Of a stretch of DNA of 64,000 nucleotides, positions 12,445 to 59,734 are shown piece after piece (positions within the stretch are counted from its first letter, which is position 1; every line of letters begins with the position of its first letter). Under the pieces are notes generated by a model. It saw nothing but the letters and a program-made list of their open reading frames with translations. It was not told where the DNA came from and did not search any database. Origin of the DNA: a bacterium (GTDB lineage Bacteria; Bdellovibrionota_C; UBA2361; RFPC01). Position numbers and translations under genes: made by a program. The stretch lies in the NCBI GenBank assembly GCA_030428205.1, contig JAUIBK010000002.1, forward strand, positions 1 to 64,000, read 5' to 3'.

Positions 12445-15225
12445 ATGGAAGCTCAGTTATTAACGAATAATCCATCAAGGCGGTTTCGCATTCGGTATGT
12501 CACCGCACTTGTGACAGCGGCTGTCGTATCTTTGGGTGCCTCGCTCTATGTTGCTTGGCTAGTGAGTAATCAACGAGCAGACGCTCACTTTATAAATCTC
12601 GCTGGAAGACAGCGGGCGCTTTCTCAGCAGATTGCTCATCATGCTACTCTTGCTGTTTATAGTGAGAGCCTTAGTCAATCTTCCAGGGACCAAGTAGAAA
12701 AGCTCTTGAGTGAATTTACGAGAGTGCATTCTGCGCTTCTTGAGGGCAATAGCGAGATTGGCCTCCCCCAAAACCATTTTCCAGAGACTCTTGAACTCTA
12801 TAAGGAGGTAGATAAACACTTTGTGGCGTTTACCAGAGGAATCCGTCAACTCCTCTCTGTCCAAGATAAAGCTCAGCATGAGCACATGCTTCAGGGAGTT
12901 CTTGATCTTTCACCTCTTTTCCTTTCGAGGATGAATAGTCTGGTTTATGCCTATTCCGAAGCGTCTTCGAAGTATTCGCAAAAACTTTTTATACTGCTTC
13001 TGGGAATGAGTATTATCGCCGTGCTTGGGTTTCTCTATATTGGGTATGGAATTTTTGAGCCGATGGCAAAAGAGCTATCGAGCTATATTGTATCGTGGAA
13101 GACCTCAAATGACGCTCTCCAAGAAAAAAATAGTCAGCTAACAAATCAATCAGTACAACTCATAGATTCTCTTGAATCACAATTTTCACTCAAAAAATTG
13201 CTGGAACTCGGCCTTGAAGACTATCCTCTACAGGACAAACTTCAGCGAGCACTTGAAATTCTTTTTGAGCTCTCATGGCTCTCTATTAAGCCGATGGGTG
13301 CTATTTTTCTTGTGCGAGAGGATGATCCTAACGCAATTCATCTTTCAGCCCATAAAGACTTAGCAAAGCCTCTTCATGTGTTATGTAATCGAGTTCCCTT
13401 TGGACATTGCCTGTGTGGGCGTGCTGCTGAAACGAAAGAAATTCAATTTGCTGATTGTGTAGATTGTCGACATGATACAAAGTTTGAAGAGATGCCCCCC
13501 CACGGCCACTACAATGTGCCAATTTTGTCTGGCGAAAAACTCCTGGGGGTGTACGTGGTATACCTCGAAGAGGGGCATACGTTTGCACAATGGGAGGTCG
13601 ACTTTCTCAGTTCTTTTGCTCAGGTCCTAGCCTCCGTTATTGAAAGAGCGCAGTTAGAAGAAACCCTTTCGAAAGAAAAAGGCAAGTTACGCTTTCTCTT
13701 TGAAGAATCCCCTGTTGGCTTTGCGTTGTGTGATATGGAAGGTGTTCTCGTTGAGGTGAATCAATCATTCCTTGATATCGTGAACTATACGGAAGAAGAA
13801 GCAAAGAAGCTTACCTACTGGGAGCTTACTCCTGAAGAATATGCTCCCCAGGAAGAAGAGCAGCTGAAGAATCTAAGAGAAACAGGCTCGTACGGACCGT
13901 ATGAAAAAGAATATATCTCCAAAGATGGCGCTCGAGTTTCTGTATTGTTGAGCGGAATACTTCTGAGTGAAGGTGATGGAAAAGACTATATTTGGTCGGT
14001 TGTTGAAGATATCACGAAACGAAAAGAACACGAAGAGACGATGCGCCGAGCCCGTAATGAAGCGCTTGCAGCAAGTCGAGCAAAAGGGGACTTTCTTGCT
14101 AATATGAGCCATGAGATTCGTACCCCAATGAACGGCGTATTGGGCATGACAGACCTCTTACTTGAAACGAAACTATCCGAAGAACAGCGTGACTTAGCTC
14201 ATACAGTGCACCAGTCAGCAGAATCTCTTCTGACCATTATTAACGATATTCTTGATTTCTCAAAAATTGAAGCCGGAAAAATAGAACTCAGCCCTATAGA
14301 TTTTTCTCTTCCACAATATTTCCATGAGATTGAAAAACTTCATCAAATCCGTATGGAAAACAAGCAACTTTCCTTTCTGGTGGAAGCTGACAGTGATGTT
14401 CCAAAGAACCTTATCGGCGATACCGGGAGGTTGCAGCAAATTCTCGTCAACCTCATTGGGAACGCTATGAAGTTTACACCAGCAGGTGGTGAGGTCGTAT
14501 TACGGGCGCAAGTAGAAAAACAAGAGGCAGATCGCGTGCAGCTCCTCTTTCATGTTTCAGACACCGGCCTTGGCATACCGTATGAAAAACAAGCAAAGAT
14601 TTTTGAAGCATTTTCTCAGGCTGATTCAAGTGTTACGAGAGAATATGGTGGAACAGGCTTAGGACTCTCTATCTCTTCTCAACTCGTACATCTTATGGGT
14701 GGTGATATTGGTCTGCAAAGTGAACCGGGAAAAGGCTCAACGTTTTATTTTACGGCTTGGTTTGGATTGTCAAAACAACTTAAAGAGCAAGAGCCCAAGG
14801 GAGAGGCTCAATCTCAGGATGTCGTAGTACATGAACACGAGAATATACATGTCCTCGTTGCTGAAGATAACGCCGTCAACCAAAAGTTAGTGAAGCGAAT
14901 CTTAGAAAAAGTCGGCTATGAAGTAACACTTGCAGAAAATGGAAAAGAGGCAGTTGATATCTTTTCGAAAAACTCTTTTGATATCATTTTGATGGATATG
15001 CAAATGCCTCTTATGAGTGGAGAGGAAGCTACTCAGTGTATCCGAGAAATGGAGAATGGAGATAAGGTTCCTATTGTTGCCCTCACCGCACACGCTATGA
15101 GTGGTGACAGAGAGAAATACCTAGCAGCAGGCTTGGATGGATATGTTTCAAAGCCCATTAACAAGAAGGAGCTCTTCTCTCTCATTTCCTCTCTAGTGCG
15201 GCGACAAAAAAGTTTTGTCACCTAA
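12445..15225 (+). CDS. Hybrid sensor histidine kinase (PilJ-GAF-PAS-HK-REC)
   Basis: A 926-residue inner-membrane kinase. TM1 is about residues 18-40. A periplasmic type-IV-pilus/nitrate-sensor-like four-helix domain carries the signature [15 protein letters not shown] (about 50-65). TM2 is about 181-205. Next come a GAF domain with several cysteines (about 265-405), a PAS domain (about 422-538), HisKA with phospho-accepting His556 in NMSHEIRTP, an HATPase with DTGLGIP, and a receiver with Asp851 in LMDMQMP. No HPt domain, so an external phosphotransfer partner is needed. The ATG at 12445 is chosen because AAGGA lies 5 nt upstream; a TTG seven codons earlier is the alternative. It directly follows the flagellins. 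Its last codons come from a dispersed repeat (15193-15418). Confidence 0.9.
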
Positions 15226-15418
15226 AACGGGAGCCGCACTTTTTCGCCGAAGGGCGAAAACCCCCGCCCGTCTTCGCTAAAGCTACGACGTGGTCCTACG
15301 AGTTCAGGTCACGACGAAGCTCGAAGAGCGTAGTCGGAGAGGGGCAATACGGCAGGGCTAGTGCCATGGAGAAAAAGAGCTGACACGAAGTGACAGAACT
15401 TTTTTGAAATGACACTAG
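15193..15418. repeat. CTAG-bounded palindromic element, copy 1 (226 bp)
   Basis: Begins CTAGTGCGGCGACAAAAAAG, contains the shared core TTTTTCGCCGAAGGGCGAAAACCC and GCAATACGGC, and ends GACACTAG. Compared with the copies at 19260 and 59735 it carries an extra inner segment of about 75 bp (about 15271-15345), itself partly palindromic. The left 33 bp encode the last ten residues and the TAA of the upstream histidine kinase. Confidence 0.8.
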
Positions 15419-15557
15419 TATGCCAGAGCGGAAAGTAGAGGCTCTTATCCTGTTGATATTACTATTTTTATTCATAAGATCTTCCTCGAATCCTCTTGCG
15501 CCCCTAGTTCTATCTAAATAACAACAACTCTTCTTTCTATTGGTAAGGACTCTCGCG

Positions 15558-47386: not shown

Positions 47387-49750
47387 TTATTGATAGGTGA
47401 AGAGAAATCTTTGGATTTCAGGGAGAAAGCCATCAAGTTTCACACGTAGAGAGTCTCCTACTACCGGGGGAGAATCCTCAAAAGCGTGTAGCGAAATTAT
47501 TCCTCGGTGACCCGCTTCTGGAACGGAAAGTGTTGCCACAGAACTATTCGTATCAGTAACGGTCACTTCCATGAACTCTCCTTGATTGTCGAGAATATGT
47601 GCAATTCTGTGAAACATGGCGAGTCGCTCAGTAAGAAGCTGGTGTACGCGCTCTTTTCGGTTGATATGACGGCGCTCTTTTTGAGCATTCTCTTTGGTGA
47701 AGTGTGGATGATCATGAAAAAAGTTGTCGACGAGCTTCGTTGGAAAACTGTTTGAGATGACGTCACTTGGAGTTGAGTGAATTCCATCGGGATGAAATTT
47801 CAGCGCCCTGTCGAGAAGCCATTGGTGATAGAGACCGACATATGTTCGCAGCGATTTGATCTCTGCATACGTATCAACTCCAAGTGCGAAGTGGCCACGG
47901 TTGAGTGTCGCAACTCTTGCCCTACCTCGGATAGCCGTATCGAGAAGTTCACGACATAAGTCTCCTTGCCCGCTTTGTTGTAGGCGTTCAATGAGAAAAG
48001 GTAAGCGGTGAGGATCGTGAAAGTCATCCGCATCAACATCAATGCCAGCGTGAGAGATACGAGTAAGAAACGACTCGACGGTCGCTTGGTTAAATGGCGC
48101 ATGAATGCGGTAGAGCATAGGAAGGTGAAGTGCGTTCATGACATCAGCAAAGTGAGATTTGCTTGCAATCATGAGTGCTTCAATCATGCGGTGTCCTGAG
48201 GTAGCAGGAACTCCTTCGTAAATAGTTCTGGTGTGCTCTGGAGATTTGAGGAGTCGGTGTTTTGCTTCGTTGAGAAACAGTGCGTCGACGTGGTGGGGAT
48301 GAGTTCGATCTGCAAGGAGTGATGCAAACTGACTCATCGGAATTGAAGCTCGATTGCGAATTTTTGCACGAACGAGGTGCGAGGAACGGATGGTGCCATC
48401 AGGGAGGATTACTCGATCGAGTACAAAGGCAGCTCGATCTTTTTCTGGGAGCAAGCTCAATTCGTAGCACGAGAGTTTCTCACCTAAGAGGTAAAGAGAG
48501 TTTTCGTTTGCATAAAGAGTATTGCCAAGGCGGCGAGCTTGTTCGGCGTGATCGGAGTCAGGGGGAACCCTCCAAGCAGCATTCGCAAATCCAGTGATGA
48601 CTCGTATCGGCTCTTCTTCCAGAATACGGAGAGTTTCAGTGAGGCTTCGAGCTTTACTGTCATGAGAAGTAGCGTAGACGACATCGTCAACATCACGAGT
48701 AGTTTCATAGTCGAATGAGAGAAAAGGAATGTCTCTGAGATCGATAAGATCACTTGGAAGTGGGCGAGCCCTTTCGGGTGAACTTGGTGGGAAGCGACCA
48801 GAAATCTTTCTCGCTTGGCGCCTCAGCGCATCAACATCTCTTAAAATACCGTCATCATCGGTGAGGTCTGTGAGCTGTCTCGTTGTACCTTCATACACCG
48901 AGACAGGCTCGATGATAATAAATGCTCGTAGCCGTTCACTGAGTTCTTCTTTCCACGGCTCAATTTTACTCTCTGCTGTGTCAGGGATATGAGCCCGAAT
49001 ATCGACAACGTGAAGATTGCGTCCTGAAGGAAGCGGAACACGTAAAAGAGAAGTTGAGCGCACATCGACACCGAGTGGAGCAGAGTGGGCGACCTGACGC
49101 TTGACATCTCCAGGTCGTATTTTTCCAAAGCGTTCCCCGTTGGTTGATTGCTCAATGCGAGCTTGGCGTGCCCGACATTTGATAAGGTGACTTGTGGCAC
49201 GAAGAGCACCTCGAAAATCTCCTTGCGAGATAGCCTCCTCAATCTCAGTTCTTGCCTCTTCTGGGTATACAAGGGCAACTCTACGGCCAAGCTCTTGATG
49301 AAGCTCCTCTCGAACAGTGTGAATATCTTCAAAATGAGCGTCATCTCTCAGAATGATAAAAACAGGATCTTGTCGTTCATGTTCGAACAAGACGTAATCG
49401 AGTTTATCTCCAAGTTTGTGTTCAACTACGTCATAAACCTCTTCTTTTGGCGTGCAGATTTTGGTTGTGAGCGATACGTCTGAGTGAAAAACCTTCTTAA
49501 GCGAGGCGAGAAATTCGTTGCACTCTTGGGCCGAGGGCTTTCTCCTTGCATGAGCGAGTATTGTGATGGATTCACTGTGGTGCACGGGAGGAAAGAGGGT
49601 GTGAACCCAAGGAGGAGAGAGTTGTTCGAGTTGGTTATAGAGGGTCTGTTGAGCAATTGAGGACAGTTCGCCAAAAACTTCTTCGCGACGTAGAACTCCG
49701 CCGGGATCTACAGAAGTTGGGTCTGTTGATGTTTCTTCTCGCTTATACAC
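47387..49750 (-). CDS. RNB-domain (RNase II-like) exoribonuclease, divergent
   Basis: A 787-residue protein. The catalytic RNB core lies at about residues 345-670: SFDYETTRDVDDVVYA keeps the four aspartates spaced as D-x5-D-x-DD, followed by YANENSLYLLGEKLSCYELSLLPEKDRAAFVLD. A 300-residue N-terminal region matches no cold-shock domains I recognise, and the C-terminal S1 domain is short or weak. It should degrade RNA 3' to 5'. GTG start with a weak site. This is a divergent member, not an obvious RNase R or RNase II. Confidence 0.75.
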   Translation of the reverse strand: MYKREETSTDPTSVDPGGVLRREEVFGELSSIAQQTLYNQLEQLSPPWVHTLFPPVHHSESITILAHARRKPSAQECNEFLASLKKVFHSDVSLTTKICTPKEEVYDVVEHKLGDKLDYVLFEHERQDPVFIILRDDAHFEDIHTVREELHQELGRRVALVYPEEARTEIEEAISQGDFRGALRATSHLIKCRARQARIEQSTNGERFGKIRPGDVKRQVAHSAPLGVDVRSTSLLRVPLPSGRNLHVVDIRAHIPDTAESKIEPWKEELSERLRAFIIIEPVSVYEGTTRQLTDLTDDDGILRDVDALRRQARKISGRFPPSSPERARPLPSDLIDLRDIPFLSFDYETTRDVDDVVYATSHDSKARSLTETLRILEEEPIRVITGFANAAWRVPPDSDHAEQARRLGNTLYANENSLYLLGEKLSCYELSLLPEKDRAAFVLDRVILPDGTIRSSHLVRAKIRNRASIPMSQFASLLADRTHPHHVDALFLNEAKHRLLKSPEHTRTIYEGVPATSGHRMIEALMIASKSHFADVMNALHLPMLYRIHAPFNQATVESFLTRISHAGIDVDADDFHDPHRLPFLIERLQQSGQGDLCRELLDTAIRGRARVATLNRGHFALGVDTYAEIKSLRTYVGLYHQWLLDRALKFHPDGIHSTPSDVISNSFPTKLVDNFFHDHPHFTKENAQKERRHINRKERVHQLLTERLAMFHRIAHILDNQGEFMEVTVTDTNSSVATLSVPEAGHRGIISLHAFEDSPPVVGDSLRVKLDGFLPEIQRFLFTYQ

Positions 49751-49885
49751 AGGAAAATACCACTCTCTTTTTCTATTATACCCTATAACAGGGTTTTTAG
49801 AGAGTTATTTCTCTGTGAGCCTTCTCACGAGTGCTAGGCCAGAAAAACAATTTACCTCAATTGCAATGGGACACTGGCGACGAGA

Positions 49886-50575
49886 TTAAGGTTGCATCAT
49901 AGCTGGAAGGTTGAAATTTTCCATGATCTGTTGCTGTATCTGGCTTGCATCAGTGGTAGCTGGGAGAACAAGTGAAGTGATGAGACCCAAGGCAAAAAAG
50001 AACAAAATGAGACACGCAATACTCGCAAAGAAAAAGCCTGTTTTTCTTGACGCTGGAAGAGTGACCATTTTATCGCACCCTTTAAAGTACACGTAAAAAC
50101 CATACAGAGAGATAAGCATGGCAACAAAGGTGATAAGCCCCATAGGTACGAGGGTAAAAATACCAGCGAAAAGCGATGGGTAGAGAGTAAATGTTAAAAG
50201 CTTTGCAGCATGATGCTCTGTAGTTTGTCCTTCAAATTTTGGAGCAAGAAAGCAGAGTAACTTTGCGCCTGCAAAAACCCAGAGGCAGGTAATAGCTACA
50301 CGTACGATTTGTTCAAGGAGCGTTGGAAAAAAGAAAGTCTTCGTATGGATGCCCATAATCGAGATACCAACAAACGCTGATCCGATCAGAACACAGATAG
50401 CTGAAAGAGTAGCAAGGGGAAGAAGGAGAGTCGTGATGATTCCTTGGACGTTCGTTGGTTCGTCATCTTTAACCTCTGACCAGAAAGTGCCAGTTTCAAA
50501 GAACACGCTTTTTATGCGGTTCATGAGTTGTGAGAAATCAAAACCTGTTGAAGGGTGAGTTGTTTGTCCAGTCAT
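49886..50575 (-). CDS. Yip1-domain membrane protein
   Basis: A 229-residue protein with five hydrophobic helices after a soluble N-terminal 45 residues (FFETGTFWSEVKDDE), the pattern of bacterial Yip1/YIF1 family proteins. Function unknown. The start at 50575 has AGGGGA 5 nt upstream. Downstream is the RNB gene, 135 bp away; upstream lies a block of hairpins (50711-50945). Confidence 0.8.
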   Translation of the reverse strand: MTGQTTHPSTGFDFSQLMNRIKSVFFETGTFWSEVKDDEPTNVQGIITTLLLPLATLSAICVLIGSAFVGISIMGIHTKTFFFPTLLEQIVRVAITCLWVFAGAKLLCFLAPKFEGQTTEHHAAKLLTFTLYPSLFAGIFTLVPMGLITFVAMLISLYGFYVYFKGCDKMVTLPASRKTGFFFASIACLILFFFALGLITSLVLPATTDASQIQQQIMENFNLPAMMQP

Positions 50576-50710
50576 GAGAATCCCCTGCAGAGTAGTAATT
50601 CTAAATTCTATGGCTGGTAAGGGTAGCATATTGGGCGAACGGATCCAGGTCTTTTTCCCTTATAAACGGGATATGCCAAAGAAGAAGCCTGTTTGGTTGT
50701 TCCGATTCTT

Positions 50711-50945
50711 CGGCCTCCTCGAAACGAACCGAAAATCGAACAAGATATACCCCGTGAACGTAGGTTTGTCGTACTTCTTGGTCAAAATCTGATCGATTTT
50801 GGCGCTTCTTTTCACGGGGTATATTTGTATCCCCCAGGCCCATAAATGGGCCGTGCGGCCTCCCCGAGGAGACCTCGAAAATGCTTCGCATTTTATACTC
50901 AATCAGTTTTGTCTGCGACAAACCTGCGTTCATTGAGTATATCTC
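50711..50945. repeat. Dense array of inverted repeats
   Basis: Five nested or adjacent hairpins in 235 bp. 13-bp arms ATATACCCCGTGA / TCACGGGGTATAT (50745-50757, 50812-50824) enclose TCAAAATC / GATTTTGG. Next come GGCCCA / TGGGCC, CGAGGAGACCTCG, AAAATGC / GCATTTT, and TACTCAAT / ATTGAGTA enclosing TTGTC / GACAA. No coding frame is supported. It could be a structured leader or terminator region or a composite of small repeats. Confidence 0.6.
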
Positions 50946-50964
50946 TCAAAGAGAGGGTGTGAGC

Positions 50965-51711
50965 TTATGTATGAACAAGCTCAATATCACGATGAATACG
51001 AAGATCGCTTGGTTCATCCACCTCCATCCATCCTCCCTGTACATATATTGGGTGAACAGGCATGAGGTGATCGATGATGGACTGGATAAACGATGTCATG
51101 TACATGTTTCGAAAATCTTTTCCATCGTAGAGAGCATTTCGGTCAAGAGAGTGGTAATAGGTGCGAACTTTATCCAAAGCCTCTTTGGAGATCTTTATCA
51201 GGCCAATATACTGTCCTTCTATCTCGTCGTAAGAGGTTGGCTTTTTTCCTAGCTCTTTGAGTGTGCCATCTTGAGCGATGCGGAGAGTCTCAGCGTCGGC
51301 AAGGGGATCTGACATTCGCTCTTTCCAAAGCTCAAGCCAATCTTGATCGACAACGACAGAAAAGCTGTGTGGACTATCAATAAGTTTTTGAAGCACTTCA
51401 GGTGTGTAAATGATATCAGCATAAGAAATAATAAGATCGTCAGTCATCTCTTGCTCGGCGCAAAAGAGAGTTTCGACCATATTCGTGCTTGCGAAATGGT
51501 TATTTCGAAGTATCGGAAGTCCGTAGGGTTCTAAGCACTCATGTTTATACCCACCGATAAGAGTGATATCGGTAAGGTCACAGGCACGAAAGGTTGATAA
51601 GAGATATTCAAGGAGTGGTCGGCCCTTGTACTCAACTAAACACTTTGGTCGATCGTCAGTCAGGGGTGCCAATCTTGTTCCTTGGCCAGCGGCAAGTATA
51701 AGAGCCTTCAT
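50965..51711 (-). CDS. CTP:phosphoglutamine cytidylyltransferase (Cj1416-like)
   Basis: A 248-residue LicC-like nucleotidyltransferase: MKALILAAGQGTRLAPLT binds the nucleotide, then DDRPKCLVEYKGRPLLEY with the catalytic lysine, SYADIIY with a metal-binding Asp, and WMEVDEPSDLRI near the end. Alone it could be a phosphocholine or sugar-phosphate cytidylyltransferase. Its 4-bp overlap (ATGA) with a class I amidase and linkage to a glutamine-kinase-like gene match the Campylobacter Cj1416-1418 set, in which this enzyme makes CDP-L-glutamine from CTP and phospho-glutamine. Third gene of the operon. Confidence 0.75.
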   Translation of the reverse strand: MKALILAAGQGTRLAPLTDDRPKCLVEYKGRPLLEYLLSTFRACDLTDITLIGGYKHECLEPYGLPILRNNHFASTNMVETLFCAEQEMTDDLIISYADIIYTPEVLQKLIDSPHSFSVVVDQDWLELWKERMSDPLADAETLRIAQDGTLKELGKKPTSYDEIEGQYIGLIKISKEALDKVRTYYHSLDRNALYDGKDFRNMYMTSFIQSIIDHLMPVHPIYVQGGWMEVDEPSDLRIHRDIELVHT

Positions 51712-52349
51712 AAAGTGTATCCCTCAATATCGAAAAACTTTCGTAATAAAGTAAGGTTGCCCTCGCGATCAAGTTCATCTCTCTCAGGATGCCAGGCAAT
51801 TCCGAGAATTGGTAGAGATTCGTGTTCTATGGCTTCAGGCGAATGATCGGGTGCATAGGCAATCGATCGAAGCGAAGGGCCAAGCTGATCTATGCCATAG
51901 TTGTGATACGAATTGACAGTGTGTATCTCAGAGAGCAGTTCAGAGTATCTTCCGTCTGCAAGGCTCAACGTATGATTACAACGAACATGACCTGGTCGTT
52001 CACAGAGTGTGCTTTGAAAGTAGTGAGCTATCAACTGCATCCCTCTACAGATCCCAAGCACAGGAAGTTTTCGGACTAGAGCAAGTTCTACAATCTTTCG
52101 TTCAAACGCATCTCGTTTGTGAGATAGAGGGCAATCGTTTACGACTCCGAGATCGTTTCCGCCAGTCAATAGTATCCCATCAAGTACGTGCTCTCTAAAA
52201 TAGACCTGTGGATCTATGTGGCTCGAAGCAAGAATAGGCAGCGCGGGCAGGAGCGAGAAGAGGTTGGCAAATGATACATCAAGGGTGTCACGAATCTCAT
52301 GATATGCGTCGTGTAGAATGAGTCGTTGAGTGACAAGGATGTTCTTCAA
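51708..52349 (-). CDS. Class I amidotransferase (Cj1417-like CDP-glutamine hydrolase)
   Basis: A 213-residue glutamine-amidotransferase-fold (peptidase C26) enzyme. Catalytic Cys101 lies in LGICRGMQL, His187 and Glu189 in AWHPERDE, and the oxyanion strand is GILLTGGNDLG. In Campylobacter the homologous Cj1417 cleaves CDP-L-glutamine to cytidine diphosphoramidate and glutamate. TTG start, overlapping the stop of the kinase gene (TTGA), and its own stop overlaps the next start (ATGA). The specific role rests on operon context. Confidence 0.78.
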   Translation of the reverse strand: MKNILVTQRLILHDAYHEIRDTLDVSFANLFSLLPALPILASSHIDPQVYFREHVLDGILLTGGNDLGVVNDCPLSHKRDAFERKIVELALVRKLPVLGICRGMQLIAHYFQSTLCERPGHVRCNHTLSLADGRYSELLSEIHTVNSYHNYGIDQLGPSLRSIAYAPDHSPEAIEHESLPILGIAWHPERDELDREGNLTLLRKFFDIEGYTL

Positions 52350-54712
52350 TGAATTGTTTTCACCTGCTTATTCGAACAATCGATCTCAAGCATCTTCGCT
52401 GTTGACCATTGAGCATAGTTTTGTTCTCCACACCCTATCACAGCTGGTATTTGGAGTTCAGCACATCGAATGGTCATATGAGAGTTTGCGCCTCCAAACA
52501 TCGTTATGAGTCCTGCTATGTTGCGAGAGAAGATCCAGTCGTATCCAGGATCGGCGCTTGGAATAAGCACGATTTTGTTGGTCAAATCTGTCGTATCAAA
52601 CTCGTGCTCACACACAATGGGTGTGGTCACTTTTTCGTGAGTGACAAAATTAGGTTCAACATTGCCGAGTGAAAACTCATACACGTCATCTTCAGATAAG
52701 ATGAGTTGAGGAAGCTTGAGGGCCTTTGTGAGCTCATAGTCTGCGCGATTCTTCGCGATATCACCTTCGAAGATATCTTTCACGTCTCGATGACAAAGAG
52801 ATGAGTACAGATCGAGCACCGTGCGTATATTAAGATGTGAGAGGCCTTCTCTTGTGATCTCATATTTTTGGCCTAGCTGCCCTAAGTAGGAGAGTATTTG
52901 GCTTAGGCTTTTTGTAAAAACATACTTTCCGTATTCTCTTCCTTCGATCGTTTCTTTGATGAAGAGGAGTAGCTCGTCGGCTGTGGCAGTAATTCCGTTT
53001 GCAATGAGATGTTCTTCGATTTGCTTCTTTTGTTGTCGTGAGACGTTGAACGAACCCTCTCTTTCATCTCCCAGGGGGGAGCTTGTATGTTCAAAATATT
53101 TCTCAAAAGCCTCATCGTATCTTAGTGATGTGATGTCGTATGAACCAGGACGGAGATGACCATAGCGTTGAAGAAAGTCTTCTCGAGAGAGCTTTCCAGT
53201 GGAATACGAGCGAGTATCATCTGAAAGTTGTCTGGCAATGGTATTGAGCGAATTCATATAACGATTCATTTCACCCTCGGTGAAGATCCCAAGATCGACA
53301 AATGAGCGGAGAAATTGCACAGCTATAAAACCAGCACGTGCGAGCCCAGCAAAGGGGAGAGTTCCATATCGCTTACAATCTTCAATGAGCCAGTATGTCT
53401 TTTCGAGTAATGGCAGGTCGCTTTCGGTAATTTCCTTCAAGCGCTCTTCAAGATATGAGAAAGAACGTAAATCTTTTTTATAGAGTCCGGATATTGGAGA
53501 AATGACATTATTTGTTAACCGCAGGAGTGAAAATTTAATTCGATCGAGTTCAAGTTCCGAAAACCCATGTTCGAGAAGGACTTTGCTTTTTTCAACAAAA
53601 TTAAGGTAGTAACAAGAAAAGAGAATAGTAAATTCCACTTTATCGTGTTCCGTTGGTGCGTTCGTGAGTCGGTCTATGTAGTAGTCAACGAGTTTTCCTG
53701 CGATGCTTGAATCGAGATCGCTAGGAATAAACGAATTAAAACTACACCTCACGTCGATATACGGGTTGCCGAGGAAAGAGACGAGAAGTGGATAGCTCCG
53801 TAGGTTGAGATATCCATAGTTATTCCGCTGATAAGCCCAAATAGCATCAGTAATAAGCTCTTTATAGAGACTCAGTGCAAGTCGGCGTGGTTTTGTCCCG
53901 ATCATTTCGGCTGGATTCCAGTCGGTCATGATACTATAAATATTTCGTTTTCCGTGTAGGCCTGGATGCGGGGCGTTGAGTTTTTTTATTTTTCTATAGA
54001 TTTTATCGAGACTAATACCTAAGTGGTGGTGCTCGAAGAGGTTCGCTTTCTTTTGAGAGACAAGTGGGCGTACTTGAAACAGATACAAGGTATCGTCGTG
54101 TCCCAGAGCAAATTCGATGTCTAAATGATCACAATCAAAGAGATGTTCGAGTTCTTGAGCCAATTGGATGACTCTCTCTAGGGGAGCGTTCTTGATTGAG
54201 TGAGGAGCGTGTTTATACCGTATCCAAGTATGTAATGTGTTCGAGGATCCAGACGTGACTGATTCTGTGCTTCCTGAGTGATCATCGTAGTTGCAGATAT
54301 AGTACGGAGCAAATGAGTCGAGATCACGTGTGAAAAGCACACCACTTATCTTTGGAGAGACAACTTGTTCTTGTACAAAAAATTGATTGTCCTCGTGGTG
54401 GTGTTCGTGAAATGACGTAACGACGCGATCTATTGCTGCTCGAAGTTGCTCATCTTCTGAAGCGTTTATATGCAAAACAGAACAAAAAGCCCCAGCCATT
54501 GAGCAAGAGGTAGAATCTTCAATAGTGGCAGAGCTTCGAATGACTACGGTCTTGCTTCCAAAATGGCTCTGAATCTCTTCGATAATTTCTTGTGATTGTG
54601 TTTTCCACCTTAAGGCAGTAAACCATTTGAGGTCTGGGATAACTGCGCTCTGCAGGTACTCTTGAAGTTGGCAAAGTGTTGTTGCCTTTGACTGAAAGCA
54701 GACGGTGGCCAT
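52346..54712 (-). CDS. L-glutamine kinase-like, PEP-synthase-type (Cj1418-like)
   Basis: A 788-residue enzyme with an N-terminal ATP-grasp domain (VVIRSSATIEDSTSCSMAGAF, about residues 54-74; LDIEFALG ... LFQVRPL about 195-215). A long middle region carries DWNPAEMIGTKPRRLALSLYKE and YIDVRCSFNSFIPSDL. The C-terminal swivelling PEP-utiliser domain has catalytic His745 in GGANSHMTIRCAEL. It is not a true PEP synthase: the PEP/pyruvate barrel is absent. The middle motifs recall glutamine kinase Cj1418, which makes L-glutamine phosphate (amide N-P) plus AMP. First gene of the operon; divergent from the methyltransferase. Confidence 0.82.
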   Translation of the reverse strand: MATVCFQSKATTLCQLQEYLQSAVIPDLKWFTALRWKTQSQEIIEEIQSHFGSKTVVIRSSATIEDSTSCSMAGAFCSVLHINASEDEQLRAAIDRVVTSFHEHHHEDNQFFVQEQVVSPKISGVLFTRDLDSFAPYYICNYDDHSGSTESVTSGSSNTLHTWIRYKHAPHSIKNAPLERVIQLAQELEHLFDCDHLDIEFALGHDDTLYLFQVRPLVSQKKANLFEHHHLGISLDKIYRKIKKLNAPHPGLHGKRNIYSIMTDWNPAEMIGTKPRRLALSLYKELITDAIWAYQRNNYGYLNLRSYPLLVSFLGNPYIDVRCSFNSFIPSDLDSSIAGKLVDYYIDRLTNAPTEHDKVEFTILFSCYYLNFVEKSKVLLEHGFSELELDRIKFSLLRLTNNVISPISGLYKKDLRSFSYLEERLKEITESDLPLLEKTYWLIEDCKRYGTLPFAGLARAGFIAVQFLRSFVDLGIFTEGEMNRYMNSLNTIARQLSDDTRSYSTGKLSREDFLQRYGHLRPGSYDITSLRYDEAFEKYFEHTSSPLGDEREGSFNVSRQQKKQIEEHLIANGITATADELLLFIKETIEGREYGKYVFTKSLSQILSYLGQLGQKYEITREGLSHLNIRTVLDLYSSLCHRDVKDIFEGDIAKNRADYELTKALKLPQLILSEDDVYEFSLGNVEPNFVTHEKVTTPIVCEHEFDTTDLTNKIVLIPSADPGYDWIFSRNIAGLITMFGGANSHMTIRCAELQIPAVIGCGEQNYAQWSTAKMLEIDCSNKQVKTIH

Positions 54713-54872
54713 AGAGAGCTACGTTCTCAAAGTAAACATACAGACGAGGGGCTGAAAATATTCTCGCTTGAACAAGATCCCTAGGTTAAGATGCTCGAGG
54801 ACAGAGAAAAGATTCGATGTCTGGCTAGCTAAGCTGTTGATATTTATTGATTTCTATAGAAAGAGGCCACTT

Positions 54873-55634
54873 ATGAAGCAAGGCGATTTCACTCAGCTCG
54901 CAAAAGATTATATCAATCGCCCTGGCTACTCTGAGACCGTCCTCTCTGTCTTGACCAAGTACGTTGGAGCAATGCCGAAGGGGGACTTTTCGATTGCTGA
55001 TGTGGGAGCAGGGACAGGCAAACTTACTGAACTACTCCTCAAGCGAGAGTTGCACGTTACCGCTATTGAGCCAAATGATGCTATGAGACAGGAAGGAGAA
55101 TCTCATGCTCGAGGTGCCGCTTGGAAAAATGGAAGCGGGGAAGAAACTGGTCTCGAAAATAATTGTGTGAACTGGATCACTTCAGCTTCAGCCTTTCACT
55201 GGATTGATCTTGAGAAAGGGCTCACCGAATTTCACCGTATTCTCAAACCAGGAGGCTTCTTTACCTGCATGTGGAATCCACGTGACCTTCAACGAAGTGA
55301 GCTTCATATGCAGATTGAAGCACGTATCTATGAAATCGTCCCCGAGCTGAATCGTGTTTCTTCCGGTTCTGCAAAGCATATGCAGGATCTTTCTTCGAAG
55401 TTACTTTCGACTGGACATTTCACGGATTGCGTTTTCATCGAAGCTGAGCATGAAGTTGACATGACCAAAGAGCGCTATCTCGGTGCTTGGAGATCGGTCA
55501 ATGATATTCAAGCCCAGGCAGGGCCTGAGAGATTTGAGGCTATTATTGAAGCTATTGCACAAGAGATTGAGCCTCTTGATTCTGTTATTGTGCCGTATAA
55601 AACACGCTCCTGGACAGTTCAGCGGGTTGATTGA
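54873..55634 (+). CDS. SAM-dependent methyltransferase, class I
   Basis: A 253-residue methyltransferase of the UbiE/trans-aconitate type: SIADVGAGTGKLTELLL (motif I), VTAIEPNDAM (acidic residue for the ribose), ITSASAFHWID, and HRILKPGGFFTCMW (post-motif). Substrate unknown. The start at 54873 has AGAGG 6 nt upstream; a TTG 35 codons earlier is unlikely. It is divergent from the glutamine-kinase-like gene and shares its 160-bp control region. In Campylobacter, methyltransferases Cj1419/Cj1420 sit beside the same pathway and methylate the phosphoramidate; a parallel role here is inference. Confidence 0.82.
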   Translation: MKQGDFTQLAKDYINRPGYSETVLSVLTKYVGAMPKGDFSIADVGAGTGKLTELLLKRELHVTAIEPNDAMRQEGESHARGAAWKNGSGEETGLENNCVNWITSASAFHWIDLEKGLTEFHRILKPGGFFTCMWNPRDLQRSELHMQIEARIYEIVPELNRVSSGSAKHMQDLSSKLLSTGHFTDCVFIEAEHEVDMTKERYLGAWRSVNDIQAQAGPERFEAIIEAIAQEIEPLDSVIVPYKTRSWTVQRVD

Positions 55635-55648
55635 GGTACATTCGTCTG

Positions 55649-57010
55649 CTACCAATCAAATGAGGATTCATAGCCGAGTTCTATAAGACCTTGACCTACT
55701 CGGGACTTAAAGCACTCTTTTACTTTAGGAGTAAAGTGATTGATCCAGTCCCCGGGAACTCCTTTTCGTACCCAGCCCTTCTTTGAGAATTCATTCGCAT
55801 CCTCACCTGCTTTGACTTCACGTTTATACACTCCTCGCCCTGCTGCTTCTTCGTAATCTTCATAACGAATGGGTTGAAGAATGCTTGGATCGAGGTCAAG
55901 CCAGTGGAAGACTTTCTGAAACTCTTCTCGGTGTGCAGCATGTACGTTCTCAAAGCGAACGAGATACGCATCATTACTCTTTTGAGAGTAGCACATATTT
56001 TCAACAAGGAGATCTACTGGTGGTATGTAGTATCCACGGTTTGGAATGTCTTTTCGATATTTTCCTTCAATGCAAGCGATAAGTCCTTCTTCTTTTTTCG
56101 AGTCATCCAAAAACAGATCAGCGTTTGGGCAGGCACGCTCAGGAGCAGAGAGCATGAGTCCAGCAGTAGAGCGTCGAAGAAAATAGTACATGCTGATTAA
56201 ATGATCTCTTGGATCTCGACCAAGAAAGAGGACTCGAATGCCGCCATTTTCACAGAGCTTTTGAACTGAAGCTGGCCAGTGTATGTCCGCCCATTCGAAG
56301 TAGGAAAGAGAATCCGCAACAGACTGAGCTGCGTTAAACAGCACAGGGTAGTAATCAAGTTCTCCTGTATGTTTTTTTCGGAAGTTTTGAACAAAGCGAG
56401 CATTTCCGGCGAGCGGATGAGAGCGACCATGATGATCATATTTTTTACACCCGGTGAGGCTCATAAGTTTTTTAAAGCCAGGCATGAAGCGTCCTGAGCC
56501 GCACACAAAGCCAGTGAGGGTAATAAATGGATCCACTCTTTTTTCTAAGGAGGCAATAGGAATGAGTGGAATTGAGGCAAAGGGATATACTATCAATCCT
56601 CGAAATCCATATGAATGAACAAGACGACGTACTAGCTGAGTTAAAGGAAGTTTTGCATCAGTAACGAAGAGAATCTTTACTTCTGGAAAGCAGTTCACAT
56701 ATGCTGCACGTCGGTGAATATCGGTATCTTCAAGGGTAAAAACGTCTCGAAAGATACAACTCAATTTATCAATAGTAGGTGTTCCTTGAAAAGCGTTGCG
56801 GAGAGATTCTCCTATTCCGTCCTCTATTTCAAAAAAAGCAAATGATTCATGTTCGCTCAAGAGAGAGTTGCTGAAGTGCTCGATTGTTTGAATGAGATGG
56901 GTGGCGTATTCATTTGGATTTGTAGTATTTGCACCAATCCCGTAGAGGTGAGGCTCATTTTTCCATTCATCAGGAAATGGCTGTGAGGATGAAAATGGAG
57001 CCGTGCTCAT
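55649..57010 (-). CDS. Sulfotransferase-family protein
   Basis: A 453-residue protein whose second half is a PAPS-dependent sulfotransferase. The 3'-phosphate motif is VLFLGRDPRDHLISMYYF, and the C-terminal PAPS signature region is WVRKGVPGDWINHFTPKVKE, ending LIELGYES. The first half is long and unfamiliar; the usual N-terminal PSB loop is not obvious. It would sulfate a glycan or lipid hydroxyl. It follows fliG by 14 bp on the same strand and ends 14 bp from the convergent methyltransferase. Expected partners making PAPS are not in the window. Confidence 0.78.
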   Translation of the reverse strand: MSTAPFSSSQPFPDEWKNEPHLYGIGANTTNPNEYATHLIQTIEHFSNSLLSEHESFAFFEIEDGIGESLRNAFQGTPTIDKLSCIFRDVFTLEDTDIHRRAAYVNCFPEVKILFVTDAKLPLTQLVRRLVHSYGFRGLIVYPFASIPLIPIASLEKRVDPFITLTGFVCGSGRFMPGFKKLMSLTGCKKYDHHGRSHPLAGNARFVQNFRKKHTGELDYYPVLFNAAQSVADSLSYFEWADIHWPASVQKLCENGGIRVLFLGRDPRDHLISMYYFLRRSTAGLMLSAPERACPNADLFLDDSKKEEGLIACIEGKYRKDIPNRGYYIPPVDLLVENMCYSQKSNDAYLVRFENVHAAHREEFQKVFHWLDLDPSILQPIRYEDYEEAAGRGVYKREVKAGEDANEFSKKGWVRKGVPGDWINHFTPKVKECFKSRVGQGLIELGYESSFDW

Positions 57011-57024
57011 TATGGTGGCCTTTC

Positions 57025-58065
57025 TTAGACGTATTGATCTTCTTCACCACCACCACCAATAGCAATTTTGCCTTCGGCCTCTAGGCGGCGAACGATGTCG
57101 ACGATACCTTGCTGTGCTTTCTCGACGTCTTTGAGTTTGACTGGGCCAAGTGATTCGAGGTCATCTTGAATCATCTCAGCAGCACGCTTAGATACGTTGC
57201 GGAAGAGAAGGTCTCTGAGATCTTCACTGGCAGTCTTAATCGAGAGTACGAGTTGATCTCGAGGAACTTCTTTCAGGACCTGTTGAATGCCTTTATCGTC
57301 GATATTTTTACAATCTTCGAAAGTAAACATGAGGTTCCTGATCTGTTCTGCCATGTCAGGATACATCTCTTCAATTTCAGTGATGATTCGTTCTTCATTA
57401 TTACGGTCAACAAAGTTGAGGATATCAGCGGCAGATTTTGGACCACTGACTTCTTCTTCGTTGATTCCACCAGAGCGGAGGGTCGAACGAAGGACTTCTC
57501 TCACTTCATCAACAACATCACCTTTTACCATGTTGAGATTAGCGATACGTATGAGCAGATCGGTTTGGGCTTCTTCATTCATCGTTTGGAGAACCTGTGC
57601 GCCTTGGTCAGGGTTCATCTTGGTGAGAAGAAATGAGATAGTCTGAGGGTGCTCAGCTGCAATGAATGAGTTTAGGATCTTTTCAGGAATATCAGCGATA
57701 ATTTGGCTAATTGGTTCTTTACGTGAGCCAGTAATGTACTCAAGGAGGCCTTCTCCAGCTTCGTCACCAAAAGCATCAGCAATAACGTCTTTCGCAAATT
57801 CACGTCCATCAACGAGCAGAGTCTCCCCTGCTTTAATCATGGAATGAAATTCACGGGTAATCTTAAATTGATCTTCTCGCGGAACTTCCGATACGAGCAT
57901 GAAGGCACGGCTGATCCTTTTGACCTCGTTTTCTTCGAGGTTTCTCAGGATCTCGGACGCAATTTCCTTTCCCATAGAAAGGAGTACCATTGCGGCCTTC
58001 TCTGTATTACTGTAGCGGCGTGTAGTGTCTTTACTTCCACGACCGCCTCGTCCTGCTAGTGCCAT
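57025..58065 (-). CDS. fliG: Flagellar motor switch protein FliG
   Basis: A 346-residue FliG with all three domains. N-terminal: YSNTEKAAMVLLSMGKEIASEILRNL. Middle: EHPQTISFLL with the EHPQ motif. C-terminal: MFTFEDCKNIDDKGIQQVLKEV and NVSKRAAEMIQDDL, the torque helix, with charged residues intact. It links the MS ring to the C ring and takes torque from the stator. The start at 58065 (MALAGRG) is chosen over a GTG 8 codons up. It lies apart from any other motor gene (fliF, fliH, fliN are absent) and is followed by a sulfotransferase. The upstream divergent gap holds a small ACGCC/GGCGT hairpin (58174-58189). Confidence 0.95.
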   Translation of the reverse strand: MALAGRGGRGSKDTTRRYSNTEKAAMVLLSMGKEIASEILRNLEENEVKRISRAFMLVSEVPREDQFKITREFHSMIKAGETLLVDGREFAKDVIADAFGDEAGEGLLEYITGSRKEPISQIIADIPEKILNSFIAAEHPQTISFLLTKMNPDQGAQVLQTMNEEAQTDLLIRIANLNMVKGDVVDEVREVLRSTLRSGGINEEEVSGPKSAADILNFVDRNNEERIITEIEEMYPDMAEQIRNLMFTFEDCKNIDDKGIQQVLKEVPRDQLVLSIKTASEDLRDLLFRNVSKRAAEMIQDDLESLGPVKLKDVEKAQQGIVDIVRRLEAEGKIAIGGGGEEDQYV

Positions 58066-58231
58066 ATCGAGTCTTTCTCTGTGGGGCACGTATTCATTAC
58101 GCGCTATGCACAGTATAGGTATCGATATTTAAGATGATTGATTCGAGGTCTTGGATGAAAAAAAAGTAGCTTAACGCCCAAACAGGCGTAATATGCTGAA
58201 AATACATAGTAAATTTTCGTAGATAATCGCT

Positions 58232-58954
58232 ATGAAAGCCATGATTTTTGCTGCTGGCCTTGGTACCCGTCTTGGGGCAGTTACCACAGCCCAACCAAAG
58301 TGTCTCGTTGAAGTCGGTGGGCGACCGATTCTTGCCTATGTGATTGAGAGCATTCAGTCTGCTGGAATTGAAGAGATAGTGATTAATGTTCACCATTTCC
58401 CAGAGATGGTGCGTACGTTTGTTGAGTCCAATGACTCATTTGGTCTGACTATCCATTTCTCCCAAGAAGAAGACCTCCTCGAAACTGGCGGTGGACTTCT
58501 TGCTGCAAAAAAATTTTTCTCCAGCAACGATCCTATCCTTGTTCACAATGCCGATATTTTCTGTGAAATGCCTCTTGAAGAGATTGTGGCAGCACACAAT
58601 GCATCAAACGATCTCGGTACCCTTCTCACTTTTACCTCTGGTCACGATAGAGTGCTGCTCTTTGATGGCGGACACCAGCTTATTGGCTGGGAGAACAAAG
58701 CAACCGGGGACAAAGAGCAAGTAGCCTTGTGCGAACAACCAGAACACCTTTCCTTTGGAGGAATATACGTTCTCTCCCCACGGATTTTTGAATTTTTAGC
58801 GAAAGAATCAGAGGCAAAGTTTTCTATTATTCGGACATTTTTGGCTGCGGCTAAAGAGGGGGAAGCGCTTCGCGCTTTTACTCCCAAGGAGCTTGTCTGG
58901 AGTGATATCGGTACTCCCGAAGAGCTTGATGCTTTACGAACGAGATTGGCGTAA
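58232..58954 (+). CDS. Sugar-1-phosphate nucleotidyltransferase
   Basis: A 240-residue nucleotidyltransferase of the MurU/HddC/ManC-like type: MKAMIFAAGLGTRLGAVT, QPKCLVEVGGRPILAYVIE, LLETGGGLLAAKKFF and VHNADIFCEM with the metal-binding Asp, and SDIGTPEEL at the end. It activates a sugar phosphate with UTP, GTP or CTP. Which sugar is unknown. Divergent from fliG; its last 21 bp overlap the convergent HAD gene. Glycan context with the operon at 51-55 kb. Confidence 0.88.
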   Translation: MKAMIFAAGLGTRLGAVTTAQPKCLVEVGGRPILAYVIESIQSAGIEEIVINVHHFPEMVRTFVESNDSFGLTIHFSQEEDLLETGGGLLAAKKFFSSNDPILVHNADIFCEMPLEEIVAAHNASNDLGTLLTFTSGHDRVLLFDGGHQLIGWENKATGDKEQVALCEQPEHLSFGGIYVLSPRIFEFLAKESEAKFSIIRTFLAAAKEGEALRAFTPKELVWSDIGTPEELDALRTRLA

Positions 58955-59668
58955 CCAATCGATCATCTCTGAAAAGCAGTATACGTGAAGCACGTCTTCG
59001 TGGAGTTCTTTCTTTTTCCTATTATACCACACAGCTTGCCATCCGGCGTTTCGTGCCCCATGGTAGTCGGCGTCAAGACTATCTCCTATATAGAGAATTT
59101 TCTCAGGTGAAACGCGAATGCGTTTAGCGATCTCCTTGAACACCTCCTGTGATGGTTTTCGGCAGCCGAGATCTCCTGCACAGAAAACATAATCAAGGTG
59201 CTCTGAGATTCCGAGATCAGGAATGAGTTTATGGATGCGGCGATCGTTATTGGTGAGAACCCCCGTGGTAAATGAGAGCTGGTTGAGCTCATAGAGAAAA
59301 TCGACGACAAAATCGTGAAGCTCGCGAGAGTCTTCTGTTGCAAAGTGGCTGTGAATATCACTGTAAAGAGCCTCAAAATCACTTTGGCTTGGGTATACAT
59401 CGAGTCCAAAGAGAACCTGTTCGAGATAGTTCCTCCAAATGGCTGAATCGCGCTCGTGAGAAGTATGGTAGTGCTCTTTGACGTTGTAGTAGTCTTCCTC
59501 AATTGCTTTCCACGCTTGCGGGGTGACAGCATCAATCTCTGATTGGGTAAAGTGGAGCCCGTGGTTGGCAAGGATAGGTGCGTAGTGATGGCCGACACTT
59601 TCTCTTACGCGATAGAGAGTGTCGTCGGCATCAAAAAAAACAGCGGTAAGAGACTGAAAGTCAATCAT
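58934..59668 (-). CDS. HAD-superfamily hydrolase
   Basis: A 244-residue HAD phosphatase. Motif I is VFFDADDTLYRVRE, motif II is TGVLTNND, and motif III/IV is CRKPSQEVFKEI with ILYIGDSLDADYHGARNAGW. A helical cap lies between motifs I and II. It resembles the HAD-IA group with phosphoglycolate phosphatase and sugar-phosphatases; substrate undetermined. The start at 59668 is chosen over an upstream TTG-type start. Convergent overlap with the nucleotidyltransferase suggests they belong to one glycan-precursor set, though not one transcript. Confidence 0.88.
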   Translation of the reverse strand: MIDFQSLTAVFFDADDTLYRVRESVGHHYAPILANHGLHFTQSEIDAVTPQAWKAIEEDYYNVKEHYHTSHERDSAIWRNYLEQVLFGLDVYPSQSDFEALYSDIHSHFATEDSRELHDFVVDFLYELNQLSFTTGVLTNNDRRIHKLIPDLGISEHLDYVFCAGDLGCRKPSQEVFKEIAKRIRVSPEKILYIGDSLDADYHGARNAGWQAVWYNRKKKELHEDVLHVYCFSEMIDWLRQSRS

Positions 59669-59734
59669 GTGTATTGTCTCTGATAGAGTCTTGCTTTTAT
59701 GCAAGGATCTTTGTCAATCTAGGAACAGTATATA

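What the first reader, a model, noticed from the sequence alone, without database searches (positions are those of the whole stretch)
50965..54712. Three-gene cytidine diphosphoramidate pathway for phosphoramidate glycan decoration
A PEP-synthase-like enzyme lacking the PEP barrel (His745 in GGANSHM), a class I amidase (Cys101/His187/Glu189) and a LicC-type cytidylyltransferase overlap by 4 bp each. The same set in Campylobacter jejuni (Cj1418, Cj1417, Cj1416) turns glutamine, ATP and CTP into cytidine diphosphoramidate for O-methyl phosphoramidate capsule groups. Order and overlaps are seen; family roles are established in Campylobacter; function in this organism is inferred. The kinase Cj1415 and a phosphoramidate transferase are not visible here, so the pathway is either completed elsewhere or uses different final steps.
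Basis: partly seen in the sequence, partly recalled or inferred. Interest (0 to 1): 0.85.

Follow-up and report, generated by a model that had tools for sequence, protein, structure and literature searches.

The report
Phosphoramidate donor genes beside a sulfotransferase
This bacterial genome carries relatives of the enzymes with which Campylobacter makes a rare phosphorus-nitrogen decoration of its sugar coat, predicted to make the same activated donor here, next to a related methyltransferase and a sulfotransferase-family protein that would likely attach the group, and relatives of this gene set occur in many bacterial phyla.

Summary
In detail: three intact ORFs overlap by 4 bp, and the named catalytic residues are invariant in 84-94 aligned rows. 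The kinase is far above the curated model of the Campylobacter glutamine-kinase family; the amidase's best model is gamma-glutamyl-CDP-amidate hydrolase, below its cut-off.

A divergent methyltransferase (54873-55634 +) groups with the one beside the same trio in Campylobacterales and Bacillota loci. A sulfotransferase-family protein (55649-57010 -) keeps both 3'-phosphate-binding motifs.

In 94 loci gathered by the kinase, the trio recurs with the methyltransferase (75) and an APS-kinase-like kinase (68). With full flanks, a sulfotransferase-like gene lies within 3 kb in 36 of 51 kinase-bearing loci and in none of 8 kinase-free loci other than this one. A Bacillota representative models as a PAPS-sulfotransferase fold. 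This suggests that phosphoramidate transfer reuses the sulfation toolkit.

Against it: the window's assembled genome lacks the cluster kinase. Its only APS kinase falls outside the cluster clade, beside ATP sulfurylase, so the final steps here are unproven. Cytidine diphosphoramidate synthesis is very likely; transfer by the neighbouring sulfotransferase is bold but testable, and ordinary sulfation is its main rival.

The parts
52346..54712 (-). Glutamine-kinase-family protein (K18, 788 aa): ATP-binding domain, middle domain, C-terminal phosphohistidine domain, no PEP barrel
   Evidence: NF004508 987 bits, cut-off 501; PPDK_N and PEP-utilizers only; His745 in all 92 rows that have a residue there, of 94
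52478..52480 (-). Codon of His745, the predicted phospho-carrier residue
   Evidence: Position; conservation; role recalled from PEP-utilising enzymes
51708..52349 (-). Class I amidotransferase-type hydrolase (AM17, 213 aa), predicted gamma-glutamyl-CDP-amidate hydrolase
   Evidence: NF045546 162 bits, below the cut-off of 250; Cys101, His187 and Glu189 in 88 of 88 rows
50965..51711 (-). LicC-like nucleotidyltransferase (NT16, 248 aa), predicted phosphoglutamine cytidylyltransferase
   Evidence: Best solved relative LicC 1jyk, E 5.8e-16; G9, G11, R13, P22, K23 and D99 in 84 of 84 rows
54713..54872 (.). Divergent intergenic region between the kinase gene and the methyltransferase start
   Evidence: Coordinates and the conserved MKQGDF start; no promoter-like site found in it
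54873..55634 (+). SAM methyltransferase (253 aa from the conserved MKQGDF start; the longest ORF starts at 54768) of the clade found inside methyl-phosphoramidate clusters
   Evidence: Up to 56% identity to cluster methyltransferases; in a tree of 72 it lies on the side of 39 that includes the first methyltransferase of Campylobacterales locus L153
55649..57010 (-). Sulfotransferase-family protein (453 aa), candidate phosphoramidate transferase or ordinary PAPS sulfotransferase
   Evidence: PF00685 41.1 bits, cut-off 22; one of two PF00685 places in the genome
56192..56218 (-). RDPRDHLIS (residues 265-273), 3'-phosphate-binding motif
   Evidence: Aligned with SULT1C3 RNPKDCLVS; R265 and S273 invariant in alignment A4; role recalled from sulfotransferases
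55730..55768 (-). RKGVPGDWINHFT (residues 415-427), 3'-phosphate-binding motif
   Evidence: Aligned with SULT1C3 RKGMPGDWKNYFT; R415, G417 and W422 invariant in A4; role recalled from sulfotransferases

Best explanation
The window encodes relatives of the Campylobacter methyl-phosphoramidate enzymes, three overlapping genes predicted to make cytidine diphosphoramidate and a divergent methyltransferase that would likely methylate the group, next to a sulfotransferase-family protein that would likely transfer it to an acceptor. Inferred steps: the 788-aa kinase would phosphorylate the amide nitrogen of glutamine with ATP through His745. The LicC-like enzyme would join phospho-glutamine to CMP from CTP. 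The amidase would cut the glutamyl bond with Cys101 and leave glutamate and cytidine diphosphoramidate. The methyltransferase would add the O-methyl group before or after transfer. The last step is the least certain: the 453-aa protein keeps the motifs that hold a 3'-phosphate, so it should use a 3'-phosphorylated nucleotide donor. In most related clusters that 3'-phosphate would come from a linked APS-kinase-like kinase. Here that kinase was not found in the assembly, so it is in the missing part, replaced by the genome's divergent APS kinase, or not needed. Shown: gene content, order, homology, residues and recurrence. Not shown: any reaction, and the acceptor.
For: NF004508 987 bits. Invariant catalytic residues in 94, 88 and 84 rows. 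In 94 loci: amidase in 89, cytidylyltransferase in 84, methyltransferase in 75 and APS-kinase-like kinase in 68 within 8 kb. The window methyltransferase is on the cluster side of the tree with 39 others. Sulfotransferase-like gene within 3 kb in 36 of 51 full-flank loci with kinase, 0 of 8 without when the window is left out. PF00685 over the cut-off in six of six members of one cluster-linked family. A Bacillota member models as a PAPS-sulfotransferase fold. The genome has only two PF00685 places, so one lying beside this block by chance is about 0.004 under random placement. In 56 relatives the window sulfotransferase matches only G012 and, weakly, G040, and both carry the glutamine kinase.
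Against: No cluster-clade kinase in the assembled genome. In G012 the sulfotransferase relative (29%) lies in an unrelated context. The genome also has APS kinase with ATP sulfurylase, so PAPS is probably made. The window sulfotransferase matches the cluster-linked PF00685 profile weakly, 17.8 bits, less than the genome's other one, 54.9. Its structure model is unusable. The amidase is below its curated cut-off. In C. jejuni, knockouts of the two methyltransferase genes Cj1419 and Cj1420 are reported to give no apparent change of the capsule (PMC11800397, passage). No reaction was tested.
Confidence: 0.7

Rival explanations
1. The trio and methyltransferase make a methyl-phosphoramidate donor, but the 453-aa neighbour is an ordinary PAPS sulfotransferase unrelated to the pathway, and the phosphoramidate transferase is another, unlinked gene, for instance the 392-aa sulfotransferase-family protein near the flagellin gene on C54.
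For: APS kinase and ATP sulfurylase are on C4. In G002, same family and without the glutamine kinase, the counterpart of that APS kinase lies beside a sulfotransferase-like gene. The C54 protein is closer to the cluster-linked profile (54.9 against 17.8 bits) and was found in no other of 57 genomes searched. The G012 relative of the window sulfotransferase is not near its kinase gene.
Against: The window sulfotransferase lies 14 bp from the end of the methyltransferase gene, and one of two PF00685 places beside this block has a chance of about 0.004. Sulfotransferase-like genes recur beside such clusters in several phyla.
Confidence: 0.45
2. The window's set is a decaying or truncated acquisition: donor precursor enzymes remain, but without the 3'-kinase no methyl-phosphoramidate is made.
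For: Patchy presence: strong kinase matches in 4 of 56 other genomes, in none of the 4 of the same family. No cluster-clade APS-kinase-like kinase in the assembly. In same-order G012 that kinase gene lies divergently beside the glutamine-kinase gene.
Against: All ORFs are intact with the tested catalytic residues. The genome is 92.3% complete, so the kinase may be in a gap; in two other loci without a linked kinase it was found elsewhere in the genome or just past the stretch.
Confidence: 0.12
3. The trio handles another amide or a phosphocholine-type substrate, because the third protein resembles LicC.
For: The closest solved structure is CTP:phosphocholine cytidylyltransferase LicC. The amidase is below the curated cut-off.
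Against: The kinase is well inside NF004508, and the blocks special to it are invariant together with the Campylobacterales members. The three-gene linkage recurs.
Confidence: 0.08

Closest known systems
Campylobacter jejuni methyl-phosphoramidate capsule pathway (Cj1415-Cj1418, Cj1421, Cj1422)
   Same: Kinase, amidase and cytidylyltransferase in the same order; 44.9, 37.8 and 45.6% identity to Campylobacterales locus L153; a methyltransferase of the type at the Cj1420 position.
   Different: The methyltransferase is divergent; no cluster-clade kinase; no DUF2972 transferase found (where no control rang); a PF00685 sulfotransferase beside it; no capsule genes around; the amidase is below the curated cut-off.
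Clusters of Patescibacteria, Nitrospirota and Magnetospirillum (L006, L008, L009, L010, L013, L039)
   Same: Trio, methyltransferase and an adjacent PF00685 sulfotransferase.
   Different: They have the linked APS-kinase-like kinase, one strand, and a sulfotransferase of another subfamily (18-24% identity).
PAPS sulfotransferases with APS kinase and ATP sulfurylase
   Same: The 453-aa protein is PF00685 with both 3'-phosphate-binding motifs; the genome has APS kinase and ATP sulfurylase elsewhere.
   Different: In the window it stands beside cytidine diphosphoramidate genes, not beside sulfate-activation genes.

Membership tests
Glutamine kinase (Cj1418 family, NF004508) | Score above the curated cut-off over the full length | tested here: met
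   987 bits against 501, residues 2-787; L153 protein 1096
Glutamine kinase (Cj1418 family, NF004508) | Phosphohistidine domain without PEP barrel, catalytic His | tested here: met
   His745 in all 92 rows that have a residue there, of 94
Glutamine kinase (Cj1418 family, NF004508) | ATP-dependent phosphorylation of glutamine amide nitrogen | not testable with these tools
   Needs an assay
gamma-Glutamyl-CDP-amidate hydrolase (Cj1417, NF045546) | Score above the curated cut-off | tested here: not met
   162 bits against 250. L003 (183) and L006 (170) also fall below, while L153 (325) and L154 (333) pass. I therefore call it a relative of this family, not a member as curated
gamma-Glutamyl-CDP-amidate hydrolase (Cj1417, NF045546) | Cys-His-Glu triad and linkage to the kinase gene | tested here: met
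   Triad in 88 of 88 rows; linkage in 89 of 94 loci
Phosphoglutamine cytidylyltransferase (Cj1416) | Nucleotidyltransferase signature and linkage to the kinase gene | tested here: met
   84 of 84 rows; 84 of 94 loci. No NCBIfam model specific to it came up
Cytidine diphosphoramidate kinase (Cj1415 clade) | A member of the cluster clade in window or genome | tested here: not met
   Not in the window. The best genome hit, on C4, lies outside the 31-member clade, 100/98. The assembly is 92.3% complete
Methyl-phosphoramidate transferase (DUF2972 / NF058596) | DUF2972 domain in the genome | tested here: inconclusive
   0 of 1, but no control genome rang
Cluster methyltransferase (Cj1420-position clade) | Falls within the clade on a tree | tested here: met
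   Side of 40 rows (39 + window), SH-aLRT 100 (quick method)
Sulfotransferase superfamily (PF00685) | Score above cut-off and both 3'-phosphate-binding motifs | tested here: met
   41.1 against 22 bits; motifs aligned
Sulfotransferase superfamily (PF00685) | Predicted fold of the window protein | tested here: inconclusive
   Model pLDDT 37.6, not used
Sulfotransferase superfamily (PF00685) | Donor is PAPS rather than a cytidine nucleotide | not testable with these tools
   Needs an assay

The most novel reading that the evidence does not exclude
Phosphoramidate transfer is a repurposed sulfation system. An APS-kinase descendant makes 3'-phospho-cytidine diphosphoramidate, a PAPS look-alike, and sulfotransferase-fold enzymes, among them the 453-aa protein of this window and perhaps the DUF2972 methyl-phosphoramidate transferases of Campylobacter, move a P-N group instead of sulfate, in bacteria of many phyla.
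Probability: 0.4. Interest if true: 0.82.

Novelty: new variant of a known kind. Interest (0 to 1): 0.62.

Why it matters
In the passages I read, methyl-phosphoramidate is described only from Campylobacter (PMC6429109), and a 2022 review calls the glutamine kinase C. jejuni-specific (PMC9561416). Homologues of Cj1419-Cj1422 have been reported in enterohepatic Helicobacter (PMC6247508). The enzyme set in many phyla means that biological P-N chemistry is probably much more widespread. The repeated pairing with an APS-kinase-like kinase and a sulfotransferase-like gene gives a concrete, testable answer to how the group is transferred and why the donor carries a 3'-phosphate. It also ties the unassigned methyltransferases to the pathway by gene linkage.

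Tried and rejected
LicC/phosphocholine reading: LicC is the closest solved structure, but the kinase and amidase partners and their recurrent linkage speak against it.

The second NTP transferase at 58232-58954: MurU-like (134 bits, below the cut-off of 250). It joined the cytidylyltransferase group in my clustering by generic similarity; rejected as part of the set.

The C4 APS kinase as the missing kinase: rejected as a member of the cluster clade by tree. It remains possible as a substitute.

Profile comparison of DUF2972 with the sulfotransferase sets: no match with shallow alignments (probability 0.0 on both tries); the window-G012 pair against the Bacillota set gave probability 31. For DUF2972 only motif resemblance by eye remains, so I do not claim that fold.

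Structure of the window sulfotransferase: pLDDT 37.6, not used. Homologue search with it: 2 proteins at E 0.001 among 4767 candidates, itself and a partial match.

Promoter scan: 4 promoter-like sites, fewer than in shuffles (mean 10.4), none in the divergent gap; 13 terminator-like sites against 5.0 in shuffles, not followed up. Rfam: 0 matches in 49000-59000.

Papers: PMC2674064 holds the phosphoramidate term only in its reference list. PMC5938747, the kinase paper, is not held. 'MeOPN transferase', 'sulfotransferase' and 'DUF2972', at least two of three, gave 2 papers: PMC5808241 (passages) names DUF2972 as the C-terminal part of a transferase; PMC9769813 was seen as listing only.

Caveats on counts: the 80 loci are the best 80 of 274 by similarity to the window's kinase and are rich in Bacillota. 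The sulfotransferase-like profiles were seeded from genes of these same clusters, and the window's own profile by itself, so the window is left out of 36 of 51 versus 0 of 8. The DUF2972 profile counts among the 'sulfotransferase-like' ones, although its fold is unproven; five full-flank loci (L152, L153, L155, L158, L161) depend on it alone. L037 is counted as kinase-bearing because its kinase lies just beyond the fetched stretch. Loci with short flanks: 10 of 18 with kinase and 4 of 16 without kinase have a sulfotransferase-like gene; in the latter a kinase may be cut off. Fisher values ignore relatedness. The kinase (A1) tree used 26 of 48 length-filtered cluster kinases plus 5 from other genomes.
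Full report
OBSERVATION. The window is C22:1-64000 of an unnamed 3.76 Mb genome in 81 contigs, 92.3% complete. A genome of the same class, G033, holds the contig deposited as Bdellovibrionales bacterium HKST-UBA19, so the organism is probably Bdellovibrionota-like (inference).

IDENTITY OF THE TRIO. The 788-aa protein scores 987 bits on NF004508 (cut-off 501); the other models listed score below 60. It has the ATP-binding and phosphohistidine domains and no PEP barrel. In 94 aligned rows including the window, R59, S60, E65, E200, the stretch D264-E269 and T451-F454 are in every row, and His745 is in all 92 rows that have a residue there. The amidase's best NCBIfam model is gamma-glutamyl-CDP-amidate hydrolase at 162 bits, below the cut-off of 250; its triad is in 88 of 88 rows. 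The cytidylyltransferase resembles LicC, and its signature residues are in 84 of 84 rows. Identities to Campylobacterales locus L153 are 44.9, 37.8 and 45.6%.

CALIBRATION AGAINST CAMPYLOBACTER. Of 248 Campylobacterales genomes, 13 carry a protein above the NF004508 cut-off; 150 match at E 0.001, the other 137 below the cut-off. Twelve of the 13 loci were read; the thirteenth, L117, is in the genome of L045. L153 holds ORFs of 610 and 612 aa, two methyltransferases, kinase, amidase, cytidylyltransferase, a 434-aa DUF2972 protein and the APS-kinase-like kinase, in that order. Its 612-aa protein scores 750 bits on NF058596, O-methyl phosphoramidate transferase, and its amidase passes the cut-off at 325. 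Published work assigns Cj1415-Cj1418 to CDP-phosphoramidate 3'-phosphate and Cj1421/Cj1422 to transfer, and reports no capsule change on knockout of Cj1419/Cj1420 (PMC11800397, passages); [quoted passage not shown] In strain NCTC12662 the MeOPN transferase ends in a DUF2972 domain (PMC5808241, passages).

The ORF 54768-55634 (+) is a methyltransferase whose homology begins at MKQGDF, 54873. Its best matches, 54-56% identical, lie inside the same clusters of Bacillota and of a Patescibacteria genome. In a tree of 72 it falls on the side of 39 that includes the first methyltransferase of L153, apart from a second type of 29; 3 rows were unlabelled. Other hits in its own genome reach about 22 bits. 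Next to it, 55649-57010 (-) is a 453-aa PF00685 protein at 41.1 bits, cut-off 22, with RDPRDHLIS and RKGVPGDWINHFT aligned to solved sulfotransferases. That these motifs bind the 3'-phosphate of PAPS is recalled.

READING. The donor in Campylobacter carries a 3'-phosphate, as PAPS does, and its kinase belongs to the APS-kinase family. A sulfotransferase-type enzyme beside it would be the matching transferase. This links two steps and is the most novel outcome. For Campylobacter's own DUF2972 I have only motif resemblance by eye; the profile comparison failed.

WHAT DOES NOT FIT. The window's assembled genome lacks the cluster kinase. Its only clear APS kinase (C4) forms with its G002 counterpart a pair outside the 31-member cluster clade (100/98), on the side of the 23 ordinary ones. 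It sits beside ATP sulfurylase and a pyruvate-kinase-like gene. In G002, of the same family and without a glutamine-kinase match, the counterpart lies beside a sulfotransferase-like gene (20.6 bits, cut-off 22). So sulfation proper is probably present in this lineage, and the window sulfotransferase may belong to it. The genome's other PF00685 protein (C54, 392 aa), about 4 kb from a flagellin gene and among glycan genes, is closer to the cluster-linked profile (54.9 against 17.8 bits) and was found in no other of 57 genomes. It is the second candidate and would point to flagellin glycan as acceptor. The G012 relative of the window sulfotransferase stands in an unrelated context. I hold donor synthesis at about 0.85, the role of the methyltransferase at about 0.75 and the window sulfotransferase as transferase at about 0.35-0.4.

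DISTRIBUTION. Of 57 genomes including its own, 7 match the kinase at E 0.001; besides its own, 4 are strong (G012, G033, G040, G045) and 2 weak and PEP-synthase-like (G007, G046). In G012, same order, the kinase gene lies in two frames at a contig end and is divergent from an APS-kinase-like kinase and a methyltransferase that I take for the second type from its WDY start. The divergent layout is rare: 3 of 75 loci with a methyltransferase (L068, window, G012). Plasmids: 17 of 72,556 records match, 14 over at least 80% of the query.

NOVELTY. A 2019 review says the group was identified only in Campylobacter (PMC6429109, passages); a 2022 review calls the kinase C. jejuni-specific (PMC9561416, passages); a 2018 paper reports homologues of Cj1419-Cj1422 in enterohepatic Helicobacter (PMC6247508, one passage). 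In the listings of searches I recognised no paper on such clusters in other phyla or on a sulfotransferase link, but most listed papers were not opened and most subscription papers are not held. The trio here is a new member of a known kind; the linkage with sulfotransferases and the kinase-less, divergent layout make it a new variant.

Noticed in passing
G000:C54 (L205:8107-10401 and 13545-15491): Two sulfotransferase-family genes (PF00685 26 bits; PF03567/PF06990) stand side by side about 3-4 kb from a flagellin gene in a glycan-gene region, which suggests sulfated or phosphoramidated flagellin glycan.
   Followed up: partly
G000:C4 (L113:10685-13322): A divergent APS kinase, an ATP sulfurylase and a pyruvate-kinase-like gene overlap by 4 bp each; in G002 the kinase counterpart lies beside a sulfotransferase-like gene.
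   Followed up: partly
L033:3189-6110: One 973-aa ORF starts with an APS-kinase-like kinase and continues as the glutamine kinase: an apparent fusion of first and fourth step.
   Followed up: no
L159:10200-11747: One 515-aa ORF matches both methyltransferase types in tandem, an apparent fusion; a PF13469 and a DUF2972 gene stand next to it.
   Followed up: no
L007, L015, L016, L028, L053, L078, L162: Seven full-flank loci with the glutamine kinase but neither the APS-kinase-like kinase nor the methyltransferase nearby; a possible minimal, unmethylated pathway.
   Followed up: no
G037:C5 (L112:1834-3911): Both methyltransferase types (one with a stop inside) and the APS-kinase-like kinase in a same-class genome in which no glutamine kinase was found; the contig is 6.6 kb.
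   Followed up: no
Plasmid records H1-H14: Full-length glutamine-kinase relatives on plasmids of Azospirillum, Vibrio alfacsensis, Cupriavidus taiwanensis and others, 30-44% identical.
   Followed up: no
L082:7518-8963: A CDP-glycerol glycerophosphotransferase-like protein (PF04464) just before the methyltransferase of the cluster; another possible transferase type.
   Followed up: no
window 58232-58954 and 58934-59704: MurU-like nucleotidyltransferase (134 bits, below the cut-off) convergent with a HAD hydrolase, possibly cell-wall recycling; not part of this pathway.
   Followed up: no
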